A DNA stretch of 64,000 nucleotides from Bacillota bacterium. GTDB taxonomy: Bacteria; Bacillota; Bacilli; Alicyclobacillales; SLC66. The DNA lies in assembly GCA_021805735.1 (NCBI GenBank), contig JAJZEE010000001.1:1-64000 (forward strand). The letters run 5' to 3'. Shown here piece by piece: positions 8,212-37,865 of the stretch. The position numbers were made by a program, and so were the translations under genes. How positions within the stretch are numbered: position 1 is the stretch's first letter; every line of letters begins with the position of its first letter. The notes beneath the pieces were generated by a model that saw only the letters and a program-made list of their open reading frames with translations, did not search any database and was not told the DNA's origin.

Positions 8212-8281
8212 GGATTTGCATGCTGCGCCCCTGCTCAGACACGGCTGCGCCGAACTCGCGACGGGCGCAGCATGCAAATCC
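8212..8281 (-). repeat. palindromic repeat P, copy A
   Basis: Perfect 19-bp inverted arms GGATTTGCATGCTGCGCCC / GGGCGCAGCATGCAAATCC around a 32-nt loop; minus-strand loop GTCGCGAGTTCGGCGCAGCCGTGTCTGAGCAG matches copy B at 31/32. Confidence 0.93.
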
Positions 8282-8302
8282 TGACAAGAGGAACATGGAT
8301 GA

Positions 8303-9790
8303 TTAGATTCGCGCCTTTTGGGCCTGTTCCATGAGTGTTGACAACGCTTCAGGCTGAACGCCTTTAAAGTAGCGGGTCAGCAGTTCTTCGCGAGTCATCC
8401 ACACCAGTTTCGGCCGCATCTCTCCGAGCCCTGTCTTGAGCCGTTTGTAGCCCTGAGGATGGTACAGGATCATGAGCCAGACAAGCAGCAGGCCAATCCA
8501 GCGATTGAGCGCATTCTGCTCGATCTCTTCCGCGTGAAACCCCAATTTTTCGATCCCTCGATGCATCAGCGTCATTCCAAATATCCCCTTGGCCGATCGA
8601 AAGCGATCATCGTAAACAAGCGCGAGAGCGACATGATGCAGGCTGTTCCTCACTTCTTTCAATATACGGATTGCTATTTTCTCAGGGGAATCCAACGCCA
8701 GCAATTGCAGTAGAGCCTGATTTTGGAAATGCAGTTCCGCCATCGGATCACGGGGGTTGACCACGGCGCGATCGGCTTCGCGGTCTGGGCGTGAATCTGA
8801 CTCGGAGGTCCGCGCGCGTTCGCTGGAAGTTGCAGCCACGTACTCGCTGGCGAGTATACGGGGAGTTTCGGAATTCGGAAGCGATGAGTTCGGCGGGAGT
8901 TCAGCACGGCGCGCGCCAAAGCGCCAGGGCGTTACGCTAAGGCGAAACATCCGTGACAGGGGATAGACGCCATAAATGCGGTCAAACAGCCGTTCCCATT
9001 GGATCCAGATCGGGAGGATGAGCCGCTGCATCAAACGAGGCAATCTCGTTGGACGAGAGGCGGAGACGTTCAGCGCGTATAACACTGGCTCGACGTTGCA
9101 GGAAAAACCGATCTCATGGATGCGCGGCAAGAGAATCTCCAGCGCCTTAAGGGTATTGGCAGGCGCGTTTTGCGCTCCGCCGTTGTCGTGCATCAGAATG
9201 ATGGCGCCGTTGTGCAGACGAGCGCCAATGTTTTTAACAATCTCCTGCGTGCGGCCATCCCCTGTCCGCCAGTCCTTGGCGGCAAACGTCCACAACACAG
9301 GAACCAGTCCGAGGTAATGGGCCATGGCCAGGCTGCCCAAGGTGAGTCGACCCCAGGGTGGACGAAACAGCGTGGCAGGAGTGTGTGTGATCTCTTCGAG
9401 AAGGCGCTTTGTCCGGACTAAGTCCCGGTAAAGGCCCAGGGGCGTCTGGAACCACGCGTTGCCATGACGGTAGGTGTGGATTCCAAGCAGATGACCCCGC
9501 TCGTGAATGGCGCTGATCAGTTCCGGATATTTTTCCGCCTGCTTTCCGACCACGAAAAATATGGCGCGCGCCTGATGCCTGTCAAGCAGATCCAATAACT
9601 GCAGGGTGTATAGCGGGCTAGGCCCATCATCAAATGTTAGAGTGATATCTCTGGCCAGATCGTCTCCTTTGTAAATGCCGCCCACCTGAAACAGATCCAT
9701 GATCAGTTCCGCGACCGGCCCATAGATGACGGCGAGGACGAGAAAAGTGACAATGAGTATAAACAACGAGGACAAATGCGGACACCCCAA
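8303..9790 (-). CDS. polysaccharide deacetylase (NodB homology) with ~230-aa C-terminal extension
   Basis: DITLTFDDGPSPLYT, HTYRHGN, FRPPWG, ILMHDNGG motifs. Confidence 0.9.
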   Translation of the reverse strand: MGCPHLSSLFILIVTFLVLAVIYGPVAELIMDLFQVGGIYKGDDLARDITLTFDDGPSPLYTLQLLDLLDRHQARAIFFVVGKQAEKYPELISAIHERGHLLGIHTYRHGNAWFQTPLGLYRDLVRTKRLLEEITHTPATLFRPPWGRLTLGSLAMAHYLGLVPVLWTFAAKDWRTGDGRTQEIVKNIGARLHNGAIILMHDNGGAQNAPANTLKALEILLPRIHEIGFSCNVEPVLYALNVSASRPTRLPRLMQRLILPIWIQWERLFDRIYGVYPLSRMFRLSVTPWRFGARRAELPPNSSLPNSETPRILASEYVAATSSERARTSESDSRPDREADRAVVNPRDPMAELHFQNQALLQLLALDSPEKIAIRILKEVRNSLHHVALALVYDDRFRSAKGIFGMTLMHRGIEKLGFHAEEIEQNALNRWIGLLLVWLMILYHPQGYKRLKTGLGEMRPKLVWMTREELLTRYFKGVQPEALSTLMEQAQKARI

Positions 9791-9865
9791 TTCATCATTG
9801 CAGCTCTTGATTGCAACTATTGTGCAAATCCAGGACAGACAGCCCTAATGCAGAGGTGGGGATTT

Positions 9866-11083
9866 CTAGGAACTCGGCTTAAGGCGGCGCCCAAGACCGG
9901 GGATACGCATGAACACATATACCAGACCCATAGCACCCACCACGGCGGCACTCAGCAAAAACGGAGCCTGAGGTCCGACAGTCTGCCATAGACGACCGCC
10001 AATATACGGTCCCGCGGCCGTTCCAAGGCCCTCAACAGTCATGAACACGCCCCACATGGCTCCTCTCTTCTCCCGATCAATCGCCCGATCAAGCACAGAG
10101 TTCCAGGAAGGCAGTATCATCGCATACGAGAAGCCCAGCACGATCATAAATCCGATTGCGGGCCAGACACTCGTCTGCAACGTGAACAGCACGAGCGCGA
10201 TCGCCGTGAGCAAAAATCCACCAGACAAAAATGGTCTCGCGCCCACCCGGTCGACCAGTTTACCCATGACAGGCAGGAGGATGACCGTCGCGCCGCCAAC
10301 GGTTAGCATGGCGACACTCTGCAACTGGGGGCTCACTCCAAGCACCACTCGGGCATAGGGGGTCAGTACCGGGATCAGTATGCCGATCGCCAGGGTCTGG
10401 ACGAACATACCCGGAAACAGCACGCGAATCTCCTTTAAGTGTACGATGATTTCCTGCAAATATCTATGCGGATCAAACATTGGCAGTCGCCTGTCTGCAT
10501 GGGCGGGTGAGCGGGTCGCGGGAGTGGTCGTCACAGAGAGCAGCCCCCCGACGAGAAGAACCGTAACGAGTAATGTAAAGGCGGCCCGATACGACCATCC
10601 CAGAATAAAATTGACCAGGACAGGGCCGGATCCGCCGCCGATCAGCCAAGCGATATAGATATATCCCATGGAACTCGCTTTTTGTTTCTCATCTCCGTTG
10701 GCGGTTACGGTTGTGATGACAGCAGGCCACAAAGGCGAGACGCCGATGCCAAGCAGAGCCGCGCCGCCCGTGAGCGTGAGCGCGTCCACAGATCCGGCGA
10801 TGATGATCAGCCCAAGGGCGGCAATGCAAAGTCCGAGCGCCAACACTGTCCGTTGTCCAAAGTGATCGGCCAGGAAACCCATGGGCGTACGCAAAATATT
10901 GTCAAAGAAATAGTGCGTGCTAATGGCCAGCCCAATCGCCGTAGGAGTCAGCGCCAAGGCGTCGATTCCGATGTTTGGGAGCAACGATAAAATGAGCGCC
11001 CCTCGGACAAACTCCACGAGCATGAGTGTGATCAGGGCCGACATCACGTGAGGCTTGAGAATCTGCCTGGGAATCGCCTTCAT
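9866..11083 (-). CDS. major facilitator superfamily transporter
   Basis: ~12 hydrophobic segments, GFLADHFGQR and GKLVDRVGARP loop motifs; 4-nt overlap with upstream gene. Confidence 0.9.
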   Translation of the reverse strand: MKAIPRQILKPHVMSALITLMLVEFVRGALILSLLPNIGIDALALTPTAIGLAISTHYFFDNILRTPMGFLADHFGQRTVLALGLCIAALGLIIIAGSVDALTLTGGAALLGIGVSPLWPAVITTVTANGDEKQKASSMGYIYIAWLIGGGSGPVLVNFILGWSYRAAFTLLVTVLLVGGLLSVTTTPATRSPAHADRRLPMFDPHRYLQEIIVHLKEIRVLFPGMFVQTLAIGILIPVLTPYARVVLGVSPQLQSVAMLTVGGATVILLPVMGKLVDRVGARPFLSGGFLLTAIALVLFTLQTSVWPAIGFMIVLGFSYAMILPSWNSVLDRAIDREKRGAMWGVFMTVEGLGTAAGPYIGGRLWQTVGPQAPFLLSAAVVGAMGLVYVFMRIPGLGRRLKPSS

Positions 11084-12267
11084 GACTGCTCTGCGTAGAA
11101 ATGCTTTTCTGTCGGGAACTGTTCGCGCGCCGCCGCGTCGCTCTCGATCTCCGCCAGTTTTCTTGCGATATCCCGCGCGGCTGTCACTTTGCGAATGGTG
11201 TTGGTGTTGACGCGCATGCGCCTTAGCCGCGATCCGTCATCACGCAAAAGGCGATCGATATGCCCAATCACCTGTCTTCTGGTTCTGGCAAGAACAGCCA
11301 CCCGGGACTTGACGAGAAAGGCGGCGTTTTGTGTTTCCTGACCGGGGATCGGGCGGTACAAGAGCATGGGGAGTTCCATGGCCAGCGCTTCGCTTACTGT
11401 GAGTCCACCCGCTTTTGTAACAATCAGGTCAGACACGGCCATCAGTTCGTGAACTTCGCGCGTAAACCCGAATACCCAGACGGGATTCTTTGCGTCTCTG
11501 GACAGTTGTTCGATAGTCTGGCGAAGCTTCTCATTGCGTCCGCAAACGACGATCAGTTGAGCGCGTCTGTCGGATTGGAACAGTTCTTCGCAAATTTGAA
11601 CGATGTCACCAAGCACGCCATAGGCGCCGCCCATAACGAGAATGGTTGGATAATCATCTTCAAGGCCCAGTTTTACCCGAATCCCAGCGCGGTTTTTCGC
11701 CGCGAGAAACGCGGGCCGGATCGGTATCCCCGTGACGGAGATGCGGTGTTCATCAACTCCGCGAATCATAAGGCCGTGTTTCACGTGTTCGGAACCAACG
11801 AAGTAGTGATCAGTGTAGTGGTGTATCCATTGGCTGTGGATGGCATGGTCAGTGATCACTGTCGCCGCGGGTATGTTGATCAGACCCCGTTCCTTAAGCA
11901 GGGACACCACGCCCGCCGGGGTTGGGAAAGTCGAGAGTATTACGTCAGGCTTGTAAGCTTTCAGATAATCGGCAAGATCTTCGTATCCCAAATGGTTCAG
12001 GCGGCGCTGGATCAATGATGACGGCGCGATGCGGCTTGTTCCCTTGTAGAACAGGCCATACAGGGACGGAGCAAAGCGGACGCTCTTCATATAGCAGTAA
12101 CGTGCCACGGAATTGAGCATTGGGTGCACCATGTCCAGGTAGTCAATAATTTGCATTTCCAGATCAGGATTCTCTTCCATTAGCGCATCGCGAACTGCAA
12201 GCGCGGCCTGCTGGTGGCCCTCGCCGTACGAGGCCGATAAAATCAGCATTCGCCTCAGTTTTGGCAC
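11080..12267 (-). CDS. MGDG synthase / UgtP-like glycosyltransferase (GT28 type)
   Basis: ILSASYGEGHQQAALAVRDAL N-terminus, VTDHAIHSQWIHHYTDHYFVGSE, TKAGGLTVSEALAMELPMLLYRPIPGQE. Confidence 0.88.
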   Translation of the reverse strand: MPKLRRMLILSASYGEGHQQAALAVRDALMEENPDLEMQIIDYLDMVHPMLNSVARYCYMKSVRFAPSLYGLFYKGTSRIAPSSLIQRRLNHLGYEDLADYLKAYKPDVILSTFPTPAGVVSLLKERGLINIPAATVITDHAIHSQWIHHYTDHYFVGSEHVKHGLMIRGVDEHRISVTGIPIRPAFLAAKNRAGIRVKLGLEDDYPTILVMGGAYGVLGDIVQICEELFQSDRRAQLIVVCGRNEKLRQTIEQLSRDAKNPVWVFGFTREVHELMAVSDLIVTKAGGLTVSEALAMELPMLLYRPIPGQETQNAAFLVKSRVAVLARTRRQVIGHIDRLLRDDGSRLRRMRVNTNTIRKVTAARDIARKLAEIESDAAAREQFPTEKHFYAEQS

Positions 12268-12503
12268 GGAACATCCTCCTTGTCAACAGACGAATGTGCG
12301 CGGACATCCTCTGCTATTGTAGGTCACAAAGGTTAGAATGACATTAAAAAGCGTTATAACTAGTCAATTTTAACACTCTGTCGCCATTCTATACCGTCTT
12401 GGTCCGAAAAGAGAGCAACTCGACCGAGTGTAGTTCCAGTGTAGCTTATTGAGGGGCTCGTTTGCTATAATGATTCCGAGTGTCACAGGGAAGGTAAGGA
12501 GAG

Positions 12504-13136
12504 TTGTATTTGAGACCTATTCGCTGCGTGTCGCATCCCGTGGCTCTTGAAAAGATCGGCCGTTTGCGCGATCGATCCACGGACGTGTCCGAGTTTAGGC
12601 GGCTTGTACGAGAGTTGGCCATTTTACTCGCTATCGAAGCCACCAGTGACATGCCCAGCGTCGAGTACATAGTGCAGACGCCGGTGGCGCAGGCCAGGGT
12701 TACCCGCATAGCCGAGCCGGTTATTCTGGTTCCCATTTTGCGGGCGGGCCTTGGCATGGTCGATGGGATGTTGCAGTGGGTGCCTGAGGCTCGCGTCGGT
12801 CATCTCGGCATGTACCGCGATCCACAGACGCTGTCCCCGGTTGAGTATTACGCCAATACACCGCCTGAGTTGAACGAAGGCGTCGTGATCGTCCTTGACC
12901 CCATGCTTGCGACCGGAGGATCTGCGGCGGCCGCTCTCGCTGTTCTGAAGGCCAGAGGGGCGAAGCGAATCAAGGTGACCGCAATTCTCGCCGCGCCGGA
13001 GGGAATCGCCAAACTCGACGAGTTGCACCCCGATGTTGAACTGTATGCGATCGCGGTTGACGAGGGGTTGAACAGTCATGGATATATTGTGCCTGGTCTT
13101 GGGGACGCGGGCGATCGCATATTTGGAACTCTGTGA
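12504..13136 (+). CDS. upp: uracil phosphoribosyltransferase
   Basis: LVPILRAGLGMVDGM, VIVLDPMLATGGSAAAA, GDAGDRIFGT motifs; TTG start at 12504 or 12510. Confidence 0.96.
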   Translation: MYLRPIRCVSHPVALEKIGRLRDRSTDVSEFRRLVRELAILLAIEATSDMPSVEYIVQTPVAQARVTRIAEPVILVPILRAGLGMVDGMLQWVPEARVGHLGMYRDPQTLSPVEYYANTPPELNEGVVIVLDPMLATGGSAAAALAVLKARGAKRIKVTAILAAPEGIAKLDELHPDVELYAIAVDEGLNSHGYIVPGLGDAGDRIFGTL

Positions 13137-13153
13137 TGGCAAGGGGTGAAGCG

Positions 13154-14311
13154 ATGCCGCGCATTCGCGTGATGACAATATTCGGGACGCGTCCTGAAGC
13201 TGTAAAGATGGCGCCACTCGTCAGGGCGCTTCGGGCGGCGCAAGAGTTTGAGACCACTGTATGCGTCACCGCCCAACATCGAGAGCAACTGGATCAAGTG
13301 TTGTCGACGTTTGACATCGCGCCCGACTTCGACCTGAACATCATGGAGGCGAGGCAAACGCTGACGCTGATCTCAACCAAGGCGCTGCAACTGCTCGAGA
13401 GTGTCCTTGAAGAGGTCAAACCGGACGTTGTTCTCGTGCACGGTGATACGACCACGACGTTCGTTGCCAGTCTGGCTGCCTTTTATCAGCAGATCACCAT
13501 CGGACATGTGGAGGCCGGCTTGCGGACATGGGAAAAGTATTCTCCCTATCCGGAAGAGATGAATCGTCAGTTGACAGGCGTTCTCGCCGATCTGCATTTC
13601 GCTCCCACTCAGGTGGCGGCTGATAATCTGTTGCGCGAAGGGAAGCCTCACCACGCGATTTACGTGACTGGGAACACGGCGATCGACGCGATGCGGACCA
13701 CCGTGAAGTCGGATTATCACCATCCCGTGCTCGAGCGTGTCGACCCGTCGCGACGGCTCATTTACATGACGGCCCATCGCCGCGAAAACATCGGTTATAA
13801 GCTGGAACAGATATTTTCCGCCGTGCGTGAATTGGTCGAGACGCACTCCGATCTGTTCGTGGTTTACCCCATGCATCTCAATCCCGCAGTCCGGGAACCG
13901 GCGCAGCGTATCCTTGGCGATCACAAGCGCATCGCCTTGATTGAGCCGCTCGATGTTCTTGACGCGCACAATTTTATGGCCAGGGCGCATCTGATACTGA
14001 CCGACTCGGGAGGCGTCCAGGAAGAAGCGCCGTTTCTCGGGGTTCCCTGTCTTGTGTTGCGGGATACCACCGAACGGCCTGAAGGCGTCGACGCAGGCAC
14101 TCTGAAACTGGTGGGCACCGATAAGGATGAGATTGTACGCACAGCGGACGACCTTCTTCGGAACTCTGACTCTTATCGCAGAATGTCAGTGGCGGCGAGT
14201 CCTTATGGGGACGGTTTCGCTTCGGACCGCATCGTGCAGGCTCTCCGTCACTTCTTTGGTCGGGGGTCGGCGCCGGATTCCTTTGTGCCGCGTCCGAAGA
14301 TGGAACTGTAG
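13154..14311 (+). CDS. wecB: UDP-N-acetylglucosamine 2-epimerase (non-hydrolysing)
   Basis: FGTRPEAVKMAPLV, VHGDTTTTFVASLAAFY, HVEAGLRT, TDSGGVQEEAPFLGVPCLVLRDTTERPEG; ORF extends to 13133. Confidence 0.96.
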   Translation: MPRIRVMTIFGTRPEAVKMAPLVRALRAAQEFETTVCVTAQHREQLDQVLSTFDIAPDFDLNIMEARQTLTLISTKALQLLESVLEEVKPDVVLVHGDTTTTFVASLAAFYQQITIGHVEAGLRTWEKYSPYPEEMNRQLTGVLADLHFAPTQVAADNLLREGKPHHAIYVTGNTAIDAMRTTVKSDYHHPVLERVDPSRRLIYMTAHRRENIGYKLEQIFSAVRELVETHSDLFVVYPMHLNPAVREPAQRILGDHKRIALIEPLDVLDAHNFMARAHLILTDSGGVQEEAPFLGVPCLVLRDTTERPEGVDAGTLKLVGTDKDEIVRTADDLLRNSDSYRRMSVAASPYGDGFASDRIVQALRHFFGRGSAPDSFVPRPKMEL

Positions 14312-14405
14312 AGAGTTCGGCAACCGCCGTACCGTTCGCTGACTTTGGGCAACTGCCGATCGTGAGGGTTCACCGCAACATATCCGCATGCTTTTTTGAG
14401 GGGGA

Positions 14406-15590
14406 ATGGTTATGGAGGAAGCGGTCATCGTCTCAGCCACTCGAACAGCCATTGGCGCCTTTGGCGGCAGCCTGGCGGGGATACCGGGTCCGGACCTTGG
14501 TTCCTTGGTCATCAGGGAAGCGCTTACACGAGCGGGAATTGACGGATCCTCCGTGGACGAGGTCATTATGGGCAATGTACTCCAGGCTGGTCTCGGGCAG
14601 AATCCAGCCCGACAAGCCGCGCTGCACGCGGGGTTGGCGCCGGAACTTCCGGCGTTCACCGTCAACAAAGTGTGCGGATCCGGTCTGAAGACCATCGCTC
14701 TCGCTGCCCAAGCGATTCGGGCAGGCGATGAGGAGGTTGTGGTTGCCGGCGGCATGGAGAATATGAGCCGTGCGCCGTACCTGCTCGAAGGCGCGCGGAC
14801 CGGGTTTCGCATGGGGGATCAGACCGTCGTGGACAGCATGATCAGGGATGGGCTGTGGTGCGCATTCGACCACTGCCACATGGGGGTCACGGCGGAAAAC
14901 GTCGCTGAACGCTACTCGCTGTCTCGAGAAGCGCAGGATTCGTTTGCGCTGCGTTCGCAGGAGCGTGCTCGGGCAGCGATTGCGGCGGGCCATTTTGCGC
15001 AGGAGATCGTTCCTGTCTCCATTGCGCAGAAAAAAAGCGATCCCGTGCTCTTTGCCACCGACGAACATCCCAGGGAAACATCTCTTGAAGCATTGTCGAA
15101 GCTGCGGCCTGCCTTTAAGAAGGACGGCGTCGTTACGGCCGGCAACGCGTCCGGGCTCAATGACGGAGCGGCCGCCGTGGTTGTCATGTCCGCCAGACGC
15201 GCGCAGCAGTTGGGCGTCAAACCGCTCGCCCGCATTGTCGCCTATGCCTCAGCGGGCGTTGAACCATCGGTGATGGGGCTTGGTCCGATTTATGCAACCC
15301 AAAAGCTGTTTCAGAAATCCGGACTGTCACTCGCCGACATCGATCTGGTTGAGGCCAATGAAGCATTTGCGGCCCAGTCTCTGGCGGTTGCCCAGGAACT
15401 GGGATTTGACGAAACAAAACTGAACGTCAGTGGCGGCGCCATCGCTCTCGGGCATCCGATCGGCGCGTCTGGAGCCCGTGTGCTGGTCACGCTGCTCTAC
15501 GGGCTGCTTCGAACGGGCGGCCGAATGGGTCTCGCGACGCTTTGCATCGGCGGCGGGCAAGGCGTGTCCATGGTGATTGAACGTCTGTAA
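14406..15590 (+). CDS. acetyl-CoA C-acetyltransferase (thiolase)
   Basis: [48 protein letters not shown] active-site motifs. Confidence 0.96.
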
Positions 15591-15739
15591 CCGATGTGTC
15601 AACTCCCGGAACTATGCAAGATTGGAGCTTGGCAAGAGGGGTTTTGAGGTTGCTCCAGTCGCGTTGTTCATTATAGACTGTTACTGAGCGTGCCAGCAGA
15701 TGTAATTGCAAGCGTGTAGTTGTAAGGAGGTGAAGTCTA

Positions 15740-15916
15740 TTGACCCATCATGTTCACTGGGAATTCGATTCTGAGTGTCCGCGTTGCGAGAAAATCAATC
15801 ACGTTTCGGCGCCCGCCGGCGAGCGGGTTGTGCATGTGCATTGTGAACACTGCACGCATGGTTATGATTATACCCACGTGGTTGTTGAGCACACTGATGT
15901 GGAAGATGAACAATAG
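15740..15916 (+). CDS. small zinc-ribbon protein (58 aa), absent from supplied ORF track
   Basis: TTG start 9 nt after AAGGAGGTGA; MTHHVHWEFDSECPRCEKINHVSAPAGERVVHVHCEHCTHGYDYTHVVVEHTDVEDEQ with CPRC/CEHC. Confidence 0.75.
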   Translation: MTHHVHWEFDSECPRCEKINHVSAPAGERVVHVHCEHCTHGYDYTHVVVEHTDVEDEQ

Positions 15917-16030
15917 CAATCAGCTGTGGACCTCGCCAAACGTATGCAGGTCATTTTGCGGGCCAGGTCGGGACAACTTTAAGATTTCACTCAAAATAGC
16001 CCCCGGCAGTTCGGATTTCGCTCAGATTCG

Positions 16031-16060
16031 TTGACAATGAATTTTCATTTAGTGTAGTAT
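16031..16060 (+). promoter_or_regulatory. candidate sigma-A promoter of the atp operon
   Basis: TTGACA (16031-16036), 18-nt spacer, TAGTAT (16055-16060), upstream of the AtpZ/AtpI-like ORFs. Confidence 0.6.
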
Positions 16061-16133
16061 TAGCGGGGGTTCCGGTTGACTGAGACAAAAACGGGATCTC
16101 AGGCAGGTTCACTATGGAGCGTATTACCGGCCA

Positions 16134-16403
16134 TTGGCGTTCGTCGATGAGGTGGTGAAGACAATCACTGACCATCGCAAGACTCCCGGATCATCATTTC
16201 GTGAATGGAAAGCGGTTGCGGTTTTCTCTGGGCTCGGACTCCAACTTCTGGTTAATATGCTGGTCTTTGGCTATATTGGCCATCTCCTCGCCGCAAGCTG
16301 GCATCGTTCCTGGATGACCGCCATTGGCGTCTTGGTCGGGCTTGGGGTTGGAATCTATGGGGTGTCCTATCTCATCAAACGAATGCTGGGTGATAAACCG
16401 TGA
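16134..16403 (+). CDS. AtpZ/AtpI-like small membrane protein of ATP synthase operon
   Basis: Two TM segments (LLVNMLVFGYIGHLLA; AIGVLVGLGVGIYGVSYLIKRML), first gene of atp operon; exact start uncertain. Confidence 0.7.
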   Translation: MAFVDEVVKTITDHRKTPGSSFREWKAVAVFSGLGLQLLVNMLVFGYIGHLLAASWHRSWMTAIGVLVGLGVGIYGVSYLIKRMLGDKP

Positions 16404-16813
16404 ATGAGGTGGAGTCTTTTCTTCTCCGGGTGCGCGGTATGGCAGTGGTCGGCGCGGTCCTGGCGGCCCTTACCGGGGTGTGTTGGGCCGTGTTCGGCGC
16501 GATCAGGGCGGATATGAACGGGCTCCTGCTCGGCGAAGTGGGTGGGGCTTACGTTGTCTACAGCATGGTGAGACAGGGGCACTTGAAGGACGGCCTGGAG
16601 GGCAAGGCGTTATTTGCGTCTGGCATGATGGGTATGCTGACCAGGCTGGTGGTGCTCGTCGCCGTGATGGTAGTGGCCGTCAAAACGCCAGGTGTGAATC
16701 CGATCACTGCGCTGGTGGGCTATTTGCTTGGATTTGCGTTCATATTCTTCGGCCTATATGGGTTTGCTCGAAACCGGGTGAAATCTTCAGGTGAAATCTT
16801 CAAAGGAAAGTAG
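16400..16813 (+). CDS. atpI: ATP synthase protein I
   Basis: Four hydrophobic segments, position directly before atpB. Confidence 0.75.
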   Translation: MNEVESFLLRVRGMAVVGAVLAALTGVCWAVFGAIRADMNGLLLGEVGGAYVVYSMVRQGHLKDGLEGKALFASGMMGMLTRLVVLVAVMVVAVKTPGVNPITALVGYLLGFAFIFFGLYGFARNRVKSSGEIFKGK

Positions 16814-16821
16814 GTGATAAG

Positions 16822-17586
16822 ATGCCGGCGTTCCCTTATTTGTTCTCCAACAGTATTTTCCGCATCAATCTGGTTACAATCGCCATGATGATCCTGGCCG
16901 GTCTGGTGGTGCTAATTGTCCTTCGACTCTCCATTCGCAAGCTAGATATGCGCAACCCGCGCGGGTTACAAAATTTAATTGAATGGGCGATAGATTTTAC
17001 CGCGAACATGGCGCGTGACACGATGCCCAGTGAACAGGTCGTACAGTGGATTTTGCCGCTGGCCTTCACCATGATGGCCTTTCTGTTCGTGTCCAACTGG
17101 CTCGGATTGATAGCCACAATCGCGATTCATCAGCAGCAGCCGATCCCGTGGCTGGGGATCACGGCGCAGAGTCTGGCCATGGCACACGGGGAAGTTCCGC
17201 TGTTCGACTCGCCGACGGCCAATATGAGCATGACATTGGGGATGGCTTTGATGGTCTGGGTTCTGAGCCATGCAACAGGGTTGCGGCGCCCAAAACAGTA
17301 CCTCTGGCATTTTGTGAAAAATCCCCTGGGGATCATGGAAGAGTTCACAAACCCTTTGACGCACGGCATGCGTCTATTTGGCAACATATTTGCCGGTGAA
17401 GCATTGGCTGGCGCAATCCTCACGATGCCCATACTCTTTGGGGTCGTGCCAACCGGGTTTCCGTTCCTGTTGGTCTGGTTGTTGTACAGCGGCTTTGTCA
17501 GCACGATTCAGGCGTATATCTTCACGATCCTGATGACGCTCTACGTTGGCCAAAAGTCCTTTCATGGCGGCGTGCACCACTCGTAA
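16822..17586 (+). CDS. atpB: F1Fo ATP synthase subunit a
   Basis: LTHGMRLFGNIFAGEAL, LVWLLYSGFVSTIQAYIFTILMTLYV motifs. Confidence 0.97.
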   Translation: MPAFPYLFSNSIFRINLVTIAMMILAGLVVLIVLRLSIRKLDMRNPRGLQNLIEWAIDFTANMARDTMPSEQVVQWILPLAFTMMAFLFVSNWLGLIATIAIHQQQPIPWLGITAQSLAMAHGEVPLFDSPTANMSMTLGMALMVWVLSHATGLRRPKQYLWHFVKNPLGIMEEFTNPLTHGMRLFGNIFAGEALAGAILTMPILFGVVPTGFPFLLVWLLYSGFVSTIQAYIFTILMTLYVGQKSFHGGVHHS

Positions 17587-17898
<312 letters not shown>

Positions 17899-17979
17899 AT
17901 CGCAGTCGCAGTCGACGAAGTCAGCATCGACCGTCCAGACTGGACGTTACTATGATGCGGAAAGGGGAGCGGGAACCAA

Positions 17980-18464
17980 GTGCAAGTGTTTGAACTGGGA
18001 ACATTTCTGGTATCGATCGTGACATTCCTGATCATGTTTTTGATCATTAGACGCTATGGGTTCGGTCCGATGGCAAAGATGCTGGAGAAACGAAGACTGT
18101 ATGTGGAGACGCAGATCACCGATGCAGAACAGAATCGACTCCAGGCGGAACGGTTTCTGACCGAACAGCAACAATTGCTTGAATCGGCCCGCCACCAGGC
18201 GAAGGAACTGCTTGACACGGCGCGAGTCAGGGCCGACGAACTGGCAAGGGACATTTTGAGCGACGCACAGACGGAATCGCGTCGCTTGCTGGAAGAAAAC
18301 CGCCAACTGATCGAACGCGAGCGGGCGGAAGTGCTAAACGGCGTGATGACCTCCGTGTCAGCCTTGACGGTGGAACTGAGCGAGAAACTGCTGCGGCGCA
18401 ACCTCTCTCATGAAGCCCACCAGGAAATGGTCAGGGAAGCGGAGAAACTGCTGGGTGAATTGAT

Positions 18465-18471
<7 letters not shown>
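17980..18471 (+). CDS. atpF: F1Fo ATP synthase subunit b
   Basis: N-terminal TM then long amphipathic helix; operon position. Confidence 0.95.
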
Positions 18472-20533
<2,062 letters not shown>

Positions 20534-20539
20534 ACCCTG

Positions 20540-20570
20540 CATGCCGCCGCGCGTCACGATCAGCGGCATG
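20540..20570. repeat. hairpin X in the atpA-atpG intergenic region
   Basis: CATGCCGC (20540-20547) / GCGGCATG (20563-20570) with loop containing CGCGTCAC; CATGCCGCnnCGCGTCAC recurs at 23694-23711. Confidence 0.65.
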
Positions 20571-20617
20571 AACAACAGCCTGCGGCATTTTTCAGGGACG
20601 AAGAGCCCAGTAGTGGA

Positions 20618-20687
20618 GGATTCATATGCTGTGCCCATCGCGAGTTCGGCGCAGCCGTGTCTGAGCAGGGGCACAGCATATGAATCC
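20618..20687 (+). repeat. palindromic repeat P, copy B (atpA-atpG gap)
   Basis: Perfect 19-bp arms GGATTCATATGCTGTGCCC / GGGCACAGCATATGAATCC around 32-nt loop ATCGCGAGTTCGGCGCAGCCGTGTCTGAGCAG. Confidence 0.95.
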
Positions 20688-20765
20688 GACCGGCACGGGC
20701 ACGGATGCCCGTATATTTCCAGACAACAGCAACCCAGGCGTCAGAAACCCTACGGCTGAAAGGCG

Positions 20766-23074
<2,309 letters not shown>

Positions 23075-23115
23075 AACAACACAGTCGCACACGGAACTCG
23101 TAAGGAGGTGACTAC

Positions 23116-23550
23116 GTGACGGTACCTTTTGAAGTCGTGACACCAGACAGAGTGGTGCTTACGATAGATGTCGACATGGTGTCTCTTCGTGGAGGCGGGG
23201 GCGAGATCGGCATTTTGCCGCGCCACATTCCTTTGTCCACGACAGTGAAACCAGGGGTTGTCAAGGTAAAGCTGCCGGAAGGGGAGGACTATGTCGCCGT
23301 GACGTCCGGGTTTCTTCAGGTTGTGCCTGACAAGATTACCCTGTTGGTCGAAACTGCCGAAGTGGGTTCCCTCATCGATATTGACCGCGCCATGCGCGCC
23401 AGGGAACGCGCTGAGAAGCGCATCGCCGAACACGCCAACGAGGCCGACCTTCTGCGCGCTGAGGCGGCGTTGCAGCGCGCGCTGAATCGCTTGGAGGCGG
23501 CGGAGTTGTCAGCCCGTTACGGAGATTTGATCAAACAGCGAATCATGTGA
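23116..23550 (+). CDS. atpC: F1Fo ATP synthase subunit epsilon
   Basis: VTPDRVVLTIDVDMVSLRGGGGEIGILPRHIPL; operon end. Confidence 0.97.
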   Translation: MTVPFEVVTPDRVVLTIDVDMVSLRGGGGEIGILPRHIPLSTTVKPGVVKVKLPEGEDYVAVTSGFLQVVPDKITLLVETAEVGSLIDIDRAMRARERAEKRIAEHANEADLLRAEAALQRALNRLEAAELSARYGDLIKQRIM

Positions 23551-23585
23551 CCATAATGTACTTTTTGCGACGCCAGTTCGCTTGA

Positions 23586-23625
23586 GCGCCGTCGGCATGG
23601 AGGATTCCATACCGACGGCGCCTTT
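23586..23625 (+). terminator. intrinsic terminator downstream of atpC
   Basis: 16-bp stem GCGCCGTCGGCATGGA-GGAT-TCCATACCGACGGCGC (one mismatch) followed by CTTTT. Confidence 0.8.
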
Positions 23626-23737
23626 TCACTGGTACGAAGCCCGCTCCGGCCAGCAGGAAAATACTCCTGCGGCGATTTTCCGGGATAGACTTCCATGCCG
23701 CTTCGCGTCACCACCGGAGGAATGAGAGCTCGCTTGG

Positions 23738-23810
23738 CCAGAATCGTATGCTGGGCCGAGGCGAGTTCGGCGAAGCCGTGTTTGAGAAGCGGCACAGCAT
23801 ACGATTCTGG
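23738..23810 (+). repeat. palindromic repeat P, copy C (atpC-nuoA gap)
   Basis: 16-bp CCAGAATCGTATGCTG / CAGCATACGATTCTGG, one G.A mismatch, then GCCG/CGGC; loop AGGCGAGTTCGGCGAAGCCGTGTTTGAGAAG shares the core of copies A and B. Confidence 0.93.
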
Positions 23811-23854
23811 CGGGCAGGAGCAATCGATTATCCGGGATGGTCCGATCGGGTGGT

Positions 23855-23883
23855 TTTACTCATCGCTTCGCCTTTGTTATAAT
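23855..23883 (+). promoter_or_regulatory. candidate sigma-A promoter upstream of nuoA
   Basis: TTTACT (23855-23860), 17-nt spacer, TATAAT (23878-23883). Confidence 0.5.
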
Positions 23884-37808: not shown

Positions 37809-37865
37809 AACGCAACAAAGGACGCTCCCATCGGCCAGGTCGACGGGAGCGTCCTTTGTTGCGTT
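37809..37865. repeat. 21-bp perfect inverted repeat downstream of murA
   Basis: AACGCAACAAAGGACGCTCCC (37809-37829) / GGGAGCGTCCTTTGTTGCGTT (37845-37865), 15-nt loop. Confidence 0.9.

What the first reader, a model, noticed from the sequence alone, without database searches (positions are those of the whole stretch)
8212..23810. Three-copy covarying palindrome with a conserved ~30-nt loop (repeat family P)
Three intergenic copies: 8212-8281 (minus), 20618-20687 (plus), 23738-23810 (plus). Loop core GCGAGTTCGGCG(C/A)AGCCGTGT(C/T)TGAG(C/A)AG is nearly invariant (A vs B loop 31/32 identical). Stem sequence differs (GGATTTGCATGCTGCGCCC vs GGATTCATATGCTGTGCCC vs CCAGAATCGTATGCTGGGCC), and nearly every change is matched on the opposite arm (A vs B: 4 of 4). 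The loop contains CGGC-G(C/A)A-GCCG, a GNA triloop mini-hairpin. A conserved loop with compensatory stem changes is the signature of a selected structured element, and I do not recognise it as a known RNA or REP family. Whether it acts as RNA or as mobile DNA is open.
Basis: seen in the sequence. Interest (0 to 1): 0.88.

Follow-up and report, generated by a model that had tools for sequence, protein, structure and literature searches.

The report
Exchangeable RNA-like hairpin repeat in UTRs
This is a previously unnamed DNA repeat, present in about a hundred copies in this bacterium, that folds into a long hairpin with one strictly conserved internal loop, sits between genes almost always in the direction in which they are read, and has had its stems swapped wholesale between sister species, which suggests a mobile structural signal working in RNA.

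Summary
Confirmed and extended. The three palindromes are real, and they belong to a family of more than 90 copies in this genome and about 107 in a sister species (95% identical). The family is also abundant in a third congener and present in two other genera of the family. Stem covariation is overwhelming: 96% of cells are paired, with 110 two-sided changes against 29 in shuffles. The "conserved 30-nt loop" is really two things: an inner mini-hairpin that itself varies, and a conserved internal loop GCGAGTT / TGTYTGAGC. That internal loop recurs, with unrelated outer stems and inner hairpins, in a second family of Bacilli, where one species carries it in its 23S-5S rRNA spacers. Rfam, phage, plasmid and viral collections gave no match. 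Copies lie on the sense strand of neighbouring genes (46 regions to 5, p about 2e-9), and this follows transcription, not replication. At orthologous sites in the sister species 12 of 37 copies have switched stem type while their flanks stayed put; hybrid copies exist. One clean insertion is the gain of a whole framework unit, without a target-site duplication. Best reading: the swappable hairpin module of a BOX-like composite intergenic repeat, acting in the transcript, spread by recombination and gene conversion. Function is not proven.

The parts
8212..8281 (-). Copy A (stem type I). On the minus strand: 5' arm 8281-8263, internal-loop strand 1 GTCGCGAGTT 8262-8253, inner hairpin CGGCGCAGCCG 8252-8242, internal-loop strand 2 TGTCTGAGCAG 8241-8231, 3' arm 8230-8212
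   Evidence: Read directly, pattern match, CM hit 2.1e-21. Lies between serine hydroxymethyltransferase (+) and a polysaccharide-deacetylase-like gene (-), in sense with the minus-strand gene.
20618..20687 (+). Copy B (stem type I): 5' arm 20618-20636, ATCGCGAGTT 20637-20646, inner hairpin 20647-20657, TGTCTGAGCAG 20658-20668, 3' arm 20669-20687
   Evidence: CM hit 2.6e-20. Lies inside the atp operon between atpA and atpG. The orthologous copy in G001 is nearly identical (pair 15).
23738..23810 (+). Copy C (stem type II): 5' arm 23738-23758, AGG+CGAGTT 23759-23767, inner hairpin CGGCGAAGCCG 23768-23778, TGTTTGAGAAG 23779-23789, 3' arm 23790-23810; one G.A mismatch
   Evidence: Downstream of atpC and just upstream of a promoter-like site (23855-23883) before a nuoA-like gene. 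The orthologous site in G001 carries a type I hairpin instead (pair 16).
23663..23737 (+). Framework units upstream of copy C: ACTCCTGCGGCGATTTTCC (Y slot), CGGGATAGACTTCCATG, X hairpin GCCGCTTCGCGTC, CACCACCGGAGGAATGAGAGCTCGCTTGG
   Evidence: Matches to framework modules that recur around copies genome-wide. The fold extends the copy C stem into them.
23811..23845 (+). 3' framework of copy C: CGGGCAGGAGCAATCGATTATCCGGGATGG
   Evidence: Conserved 3' flank GGCAGGAACGATCGATTTTCCGGGATAG in many copies.
20538..20617 (+). Degenerate 5' framework of copy B (...GCGGCATTTTTCAGGGACGAAGAGCCCAGTAGTGGA)
   Evidence: Compare ...TTTTTCAGGGATGAAAAACCCGCTTGTGAGG at other loci.

Best explanation
P is the exchangeable hairpin module of a composite, BOX-like intergenic repeat. 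Shown: a long outer stem, an internal loop of fixed sequence (GCGAGTT on one strand, TGTYTGAGC on the other) and a small inner hairpin. Outer stem and inner hairpin are replaced between species while the internal loop stays. Copies lie in untranslated regions in sense with the flanking genes, and in one distant species in rRNA-operon spacers. Copies change by gain of whole framework units and by whole-hairpin replacement at fixed sites (ectopic gene conversion, inferred from switched stem types and hybrids). Inferred: after transcription the hairpin works in RNA. A protein, most simply a double-strand-specific ribonuclease or an RNA-binding protein, reads the internal loop clamped between two helices, so the element sets processing or stability of the transcript around it. 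The proliferation itself may be partly selfish.
For: Structure: 96% of cells paired against 84% shuffled; 16 of 23 pairs with two-sided change against 7.7 shuffled; slid controls 29-43% paired. A model built from G000/G001/G002/G005 copies finds G010 copies with a wholly different outer stem. A model built only from the second family finds own-genome copies at E about 1e-5 and nothing in the other 299 genomes searched. Sense bias: 46 to 5 co-directional regions in the own genome and 44 to 4 in the sister, with no region of mixed orientation. Not replication: in other contexts copies lie on the G-rich strand in only 12 of 27 cases. Transcribed setting: six copies in 23S-5S/tRNA spacers of G177 and one between atpA and atpG. 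Exchange: 12 switched against 25 kept orthologous copies; in kept copies 15 two-sided paired stem changes, 11 G-U-tolerant and 6 broken, with loop divergence 1.9% against 13% in the 40-nt flanks. Hybrids: 3 of 83 and 2 of 88. Unit gain: locus L044 vs L124.
Against: No transcript, protein or phenotype was examined. The restricted distribution (part of two families), high copy number and presence/absence differences also suit a selfish element. In the second family orientation is not clearly sense-biased (the gene caller was trained on another genome). rRNA-spacer placement is seen in one species only, and no tRNA was found next to the own-genome copies checked.
Confidence: 0.5

Rival explanations
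1. Selfish mobile DNA: a non-autonomous element whose single-stranded hairpin is recognised by a transposase (HUH/Y1 or other). The sense bias is only what survives selection against harmful insertions.
For: High copy number, lineage-specific amplification, clustering of copies and presence/absence differences. The genome has 8 Y1_Tnp matches. The DNA-parameter fold is as strong.
Against: No copy or framework module beside the Y1 genes, apart from one weak S-like match in L144. No target-site duplication or precise junction at the best empty site, where a whole framework unit was gained instead. A pure DNA signal does not by itself explain 46:5 sense bias or sequence-fixed asymmetry of the internal loop.
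Confidence: 0.3
2. Neutral by-product: arms are kept complementary by template switching (quasi-palindrome correction), so covariation needs no function.
For: Such correction is established for bacterial palindromes (own knowledge). Some orthologous differences are whole-hairpin replacements rather than stepwise changes.
Against: Correction would erase the mismatched internal loop, yet that loop is the best-conserved part across two families, and the inner hairpin covaries separately. Does not predict sense bias.
Confidence: 0.07
3. Transcription terminators or attenuators spread between genes.
For: Stable hairpins, often 3' of a gene (upstream gene in sense in 66 of 77 copies). The framework carries a T-run after the hairpin.
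Against: No terminator-like site scored at B or C. B sits inside the atp operon. Many copies lie between co-directional genes. A terminator needs no conserved internal loop.
Confidence: 0.06

Closest known systems
Pneumococcal BOX elements (boxA-boxB(n)-boxC; PMC3049150)
   Same: Composite modular intergenic repeat, RNA-like fold, found within transcripts, gain and loss of modules, clusters with other repeats.
   Different: Here one module is a hairpin with a conserved internal loop whose two helices are replaced wholesale, stem types switch at fixed sites, and orientation follows the flanking genes 9:1. No sequence relation was tested.
REP/BIME palindromes and RAYT (PMC3733652)
   Same: High-copy extragenic palindromes.
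   Different: REPs are 20-40 bp with a GTAG or CGTC tag at one end (abstract). P is about 70 bp with a 30-nt structured loop and no such tag at its foot, and no RAYT link was found.
ERIC and Correia/NEMIS elements
   Same: Long-hairpin intergenic repeats reported as RNase E or RNase III targets when transcribed (cited in PMC3049150).
   Different: Unrelated hosts; no internal-loop motif kept across families is described in what I read.
Bacillus cereus bcr1-bcr18 repeats
   Same: Dispersed structured intergenic repeats in Bacilli (own knowledge, not read here).
   Different: Not compared by sequence; the key paper was not found in the library.

Membership tests
Any Rfam family (release 15) | Match at or above the gathering score | tested here: not met
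   No match in the window, in eight loci even at E<=1 apart from chance hits, or on the second-family copies.
REP (GTAG/CGTC-tagged palindromes) | 20-40 bp palindrome with a fixed tetranucleotide at its foot | tested here: not met
   About 70 nt; no conserved tetranucleotide at the foot in alignment A2.
REP (GTAG/CGTC-tagged palindromes) | Associated RAYT-type Y1 transposase flanked by the palindromes | tested here: inconclusive
   Y1 genes are present, but no copies or modules within about 1.5 kb except one weak S-like match in L144. Several of these genes lie at contig ends.
MITE | Precise insertion with target-site duplication, ends shared with an IS | tested here: inconclusive
   Best empty site shows unit gain between framework repeats and no duplication. 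IS ends were not surveyed.
BOX-like composite repeat (as a kind) | Modular units present in variable number and order at different sites | tested here: met
   Framework, X, Y, P, S and Q modules in varying order; unit gain.
BOX element proper | Homology to boxA/boxB/boxC | not tested
   Pneumococcal sequences were not compared.
Phage, plasmid or viral element | Copies on such replicons | tested here: not met
   No match in plasmids, phages or viral contigs.
Ribonuclease processing element (ERIC/Correia-like behaviour) | Cleavage in the transcribed hairpin | not testable with these tools
   Needs RNA-end mapping.

The most novel reading that the evidence does not exclude
The internal loop GCGAGUU/UGUYUGAGC, clamped between two freely replaceable helices, is a new protein-recognised RNA motif shared by at least two families of Bacilli. 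It travels between transcripts as a swappable cassette and so changes post-transcriptional control of many genes between sister species.
Probability: 0.3. Interest if true: 0.78.

Novelty: new variant of a known kind. Interest (0 to 1): 0.62.

Why it matters
Small interspersed repeats are common, but whether they act in RNA or only spread as DNA is rarely decidable. Here a natural experiment helps to separate the two. The internal loop is kept across two families while both helices are replaced. Orientation follows transcription rather than replication. Sister genomes at 95% identity catch the hairpins in the act of being exchanged at fixed sites. That gives a defined motif to use as bait for its protein partner and dozens of matched loci for testing the effect.

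Tried and rejected
Rfam at gathering and relaxed thresholds: only chance hits. Plasmid, phage and viral collections: nothing. Y1/IS200-IS605 link: the genes look like ordinary IS copies without flanking P copies. Terminators. Replication-strand bias as the cause of orientation: rejected. A kink-turn reading of the internal loop (tandem G.A) was considered on paper only; the bulged strand does not fit well across families, so it is not claimed. Pattern-only hits in other Bacilli (exact GCGAGTT...TGTYTGAGC) outside the two families lack flanking stems and are probably coding chance. A 23-sequence cross-family alignment had mis-set coordinates for two rows and was not used. My first hybrid count used a wrong offset for the 3' arm and was redone. 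Literature searches for a prior description in this group gave none.

Full report
Check of the observation. The three copies are at the stated places. Aligned, they share the core CGAGTT-CGGCG(C/A)AGCCG-TGT(C/T)TGAG, which occurs exactly three times in the window against 0.01 expected. Copies A and B differ at four stem positions and all four are matched on the other arm; copy C has one G.A mismatch. All three fold far better than shuffled sequence as RNA and as DNA.

A large family. The window's own genome (3.76 Mb, 170 contigs) has 85 core matches with at most three mismatches, against one for the reversed control. The pattern GCGAGTT-N8-24-TGTYTGAGC gives 92 in the own genome. A sister species, G001, whose coordinates match MAG JA1.bin52, has 107 core matches. 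G002 (same genus) has 4 and G005 (another genus of the same family) has 9. Of the other 147 relatives, 141 have none and six have a single two-mismatch hit, which looks like background.

What is conserved. A covariance model from 39 diverse copies finds at least 69 copies each in G000, G001 and G002 (69 is the number scored per genome), 12 in G005 and 32 in G010, and none in 58 other genomes of the family, order and class. G002 therefore has many copies whose inner hairpin differs (GTGC-GAA-GCGC and others). G010 has both another outer stem (CGCCCGTGTCCCTTTGCTC / GAGCAAAGGGATACGGGCG) and another inner hairpin. What stays is the internal loop: GTCGCGAGTT on one strand and TGTCTGAGCAG on the other. 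A further class of copies in the own genome, S, has outer stem GGATCATGC...GCATGATCC and inner hairpin TTGCGGCC-TTT-GGGCCGCA around the same loop. Covariation on 39 copies: 95.9% of cells paired (shuffles 84.3%, slid versions 29-43%), 110 cells with two-sided change (shuffles 29), 16 of 23 pairs with two-sided change.

A second family. Among 400 Bacilli the exact loop pattern stood out in one other family (f37), above all in G177 with 11 matches. Those copies read stem-GGAGGAGCGAGTT-hairpin-TGTYTGAGCGGGG-stem with unrelated outer and inner helices. In G177 six lie just after 23S rRNA or in its spacer, before 5S rRNA and tRNA genes. A model from f37 copies only finds 2-15 copies in five of seven f37 genomes. 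Run over 300 genomes of the phylum, it finds only the own genome, at E of about 1e-5 to 4e-5. That is independent support that the two are one structural family.

Placement and orientation. With a simple hexamer-based gene caller, the copies lie between genes, a median of about 75 nt after the upstream stop and 120 nt before the downstream start. Counting each intergenic region once, in co-directional gene pairs the copies are in sense in 46 regions and antisense in 5 in the own genome (p = 2e-9), and 44 to 4 in G001; no region mixes orientations. Genes follow replication, so this could be a replication effect. I therefore looked at surroundings of up to 20 kb of copies in convergent, divergent and antisense settings: there the copies lie on the G-rich strand in only 12 of 27 cases. 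The orientation follows transcription. Copy A shows it directly, being in sense with a minus-strand gene in a region that is 90% plus-strand.

Exchange and mobility. Own-genome and G001 flanks are about 95% identical, and many sites carry a copy in both. Of 37 classifiable pairs, 12 have switched stem type with the flanks in place, including copy C of the window. In the 25 same-type pairs, 15 stem positions changed on both arms and stayed paired, 11 changed on one arm but stay pairable, and 6 are broken; loop divergence is 1.9% against 13% in the neighbouring 40 nt. A few copies are hybrids with one arm of each type (3 of 83 and 2 of 88). This is what short ectopic gene conversion would leave. 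Many copies are embedded in framework repeats (...CATG-hairpin-CACCAACAACCGGGAAGAAAA-[slot]-ATTTTTCGGGATAGACTTTCATG...) in which the slot may hold P, S or a short Y hairpin. At L044 the own genome has gained one whole framework unit with P where G001 has none, with no target duplication visible. Recombination between framework repeats, rather than classical transposition, is the simplest account of that site.

What it is not. Rfam has no match. It is absent from plasmid, phage and viral collections at the sensitivity used. It does not flank the IS200/IS605-type genes of this genome. It lacks the REP tag. No terminator-like site scores at copies B and C.

Mechanism. Shown: structure, conserved internal loop, transcription-following orientation, location in untranslated regions and in one rRNA operon context, exchange at fixed sites. 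Inferred: function in RNA through a protein or ribonuclease that reads the internal loop between two helices; gene conversion as the exchange mechanism. Not shown: expression, binding, phenotype, or the route of first spread. A selfish DNA element shaped by selection is the main rival, and the two are not exclusive.

Limits. The genomes are mostly drafts. Collapsed or missing repeats mean counts are lower bounds. Gene starts come from a home-made caller. G001 and G000 orientation counts are not independent because sites are shared. The second family's orientation could not be judged well. The organisms' names are not available beyond 'Bacillota bacterium JA1.bin52'.

Noticed in passing
L030, L041, L053, L063, L064, L065 (own genome); L193 (G002): A second hairpin class, S, with about 25-bp stems (GGATCATGC...GCATGATCC) and a longer inner hairpin but the same GCGAGTT/TGTTTGAGC internal loop; often next to P copies.
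   Followed up: partly
L006, L011, L040, L050 and many others: Another dispersed hairpin, Q (CTGAGTTTTGCGAAGCAAAATCTCA), and UUCG-like X hairpins (GCTGCTTCGCAGC, GGCGCTTCGCGCC) form the framework between P and S copies; at least 25 Q copies in the own-genome loci fetched.
   Followed up: partly
L231, L232, L233, L243, L244, L245 (G177): A P-like hairpin in the 23S-5S (or 23S-tRNA) spacer of every rRNA operon fragment fetched from one species of a distant Bacilli family.
   Followed up: partly
L174, L179, L184, L189, L194, L199 (G005): In G005 the hairpins carry their own, different conserved flanks (TTGAAACCANTTAACAC ... CAAATTTGCTCAAAAAGGGCCTTTGAAAGGTCTC), so the same core rides in a different repeat there.
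   Followed up: no
window 37809-37865: Near-perfect 28-bp inverted repeat with a 1-nt spacer (AACGCAACAAAGGACGCTCCC...), no T-run after it; not related to P.
   Followed up: no
window 23855-23883: Good promoter-like site (TTTACT-17-TATAAT with extended -10) directly after copy C and before a nuoA-like gene.
   Followed up: no
L025 and L113: A copy with a unique stem (ACGGACCGACTGTTGTGCCC) next to a short tandem repeat GGCAGACGTGCGGCCTTCGTTC; G001 carries an extra inserted palindrome (CACATATAGCGTTTGAGG...) beside it.
   Followed up: no
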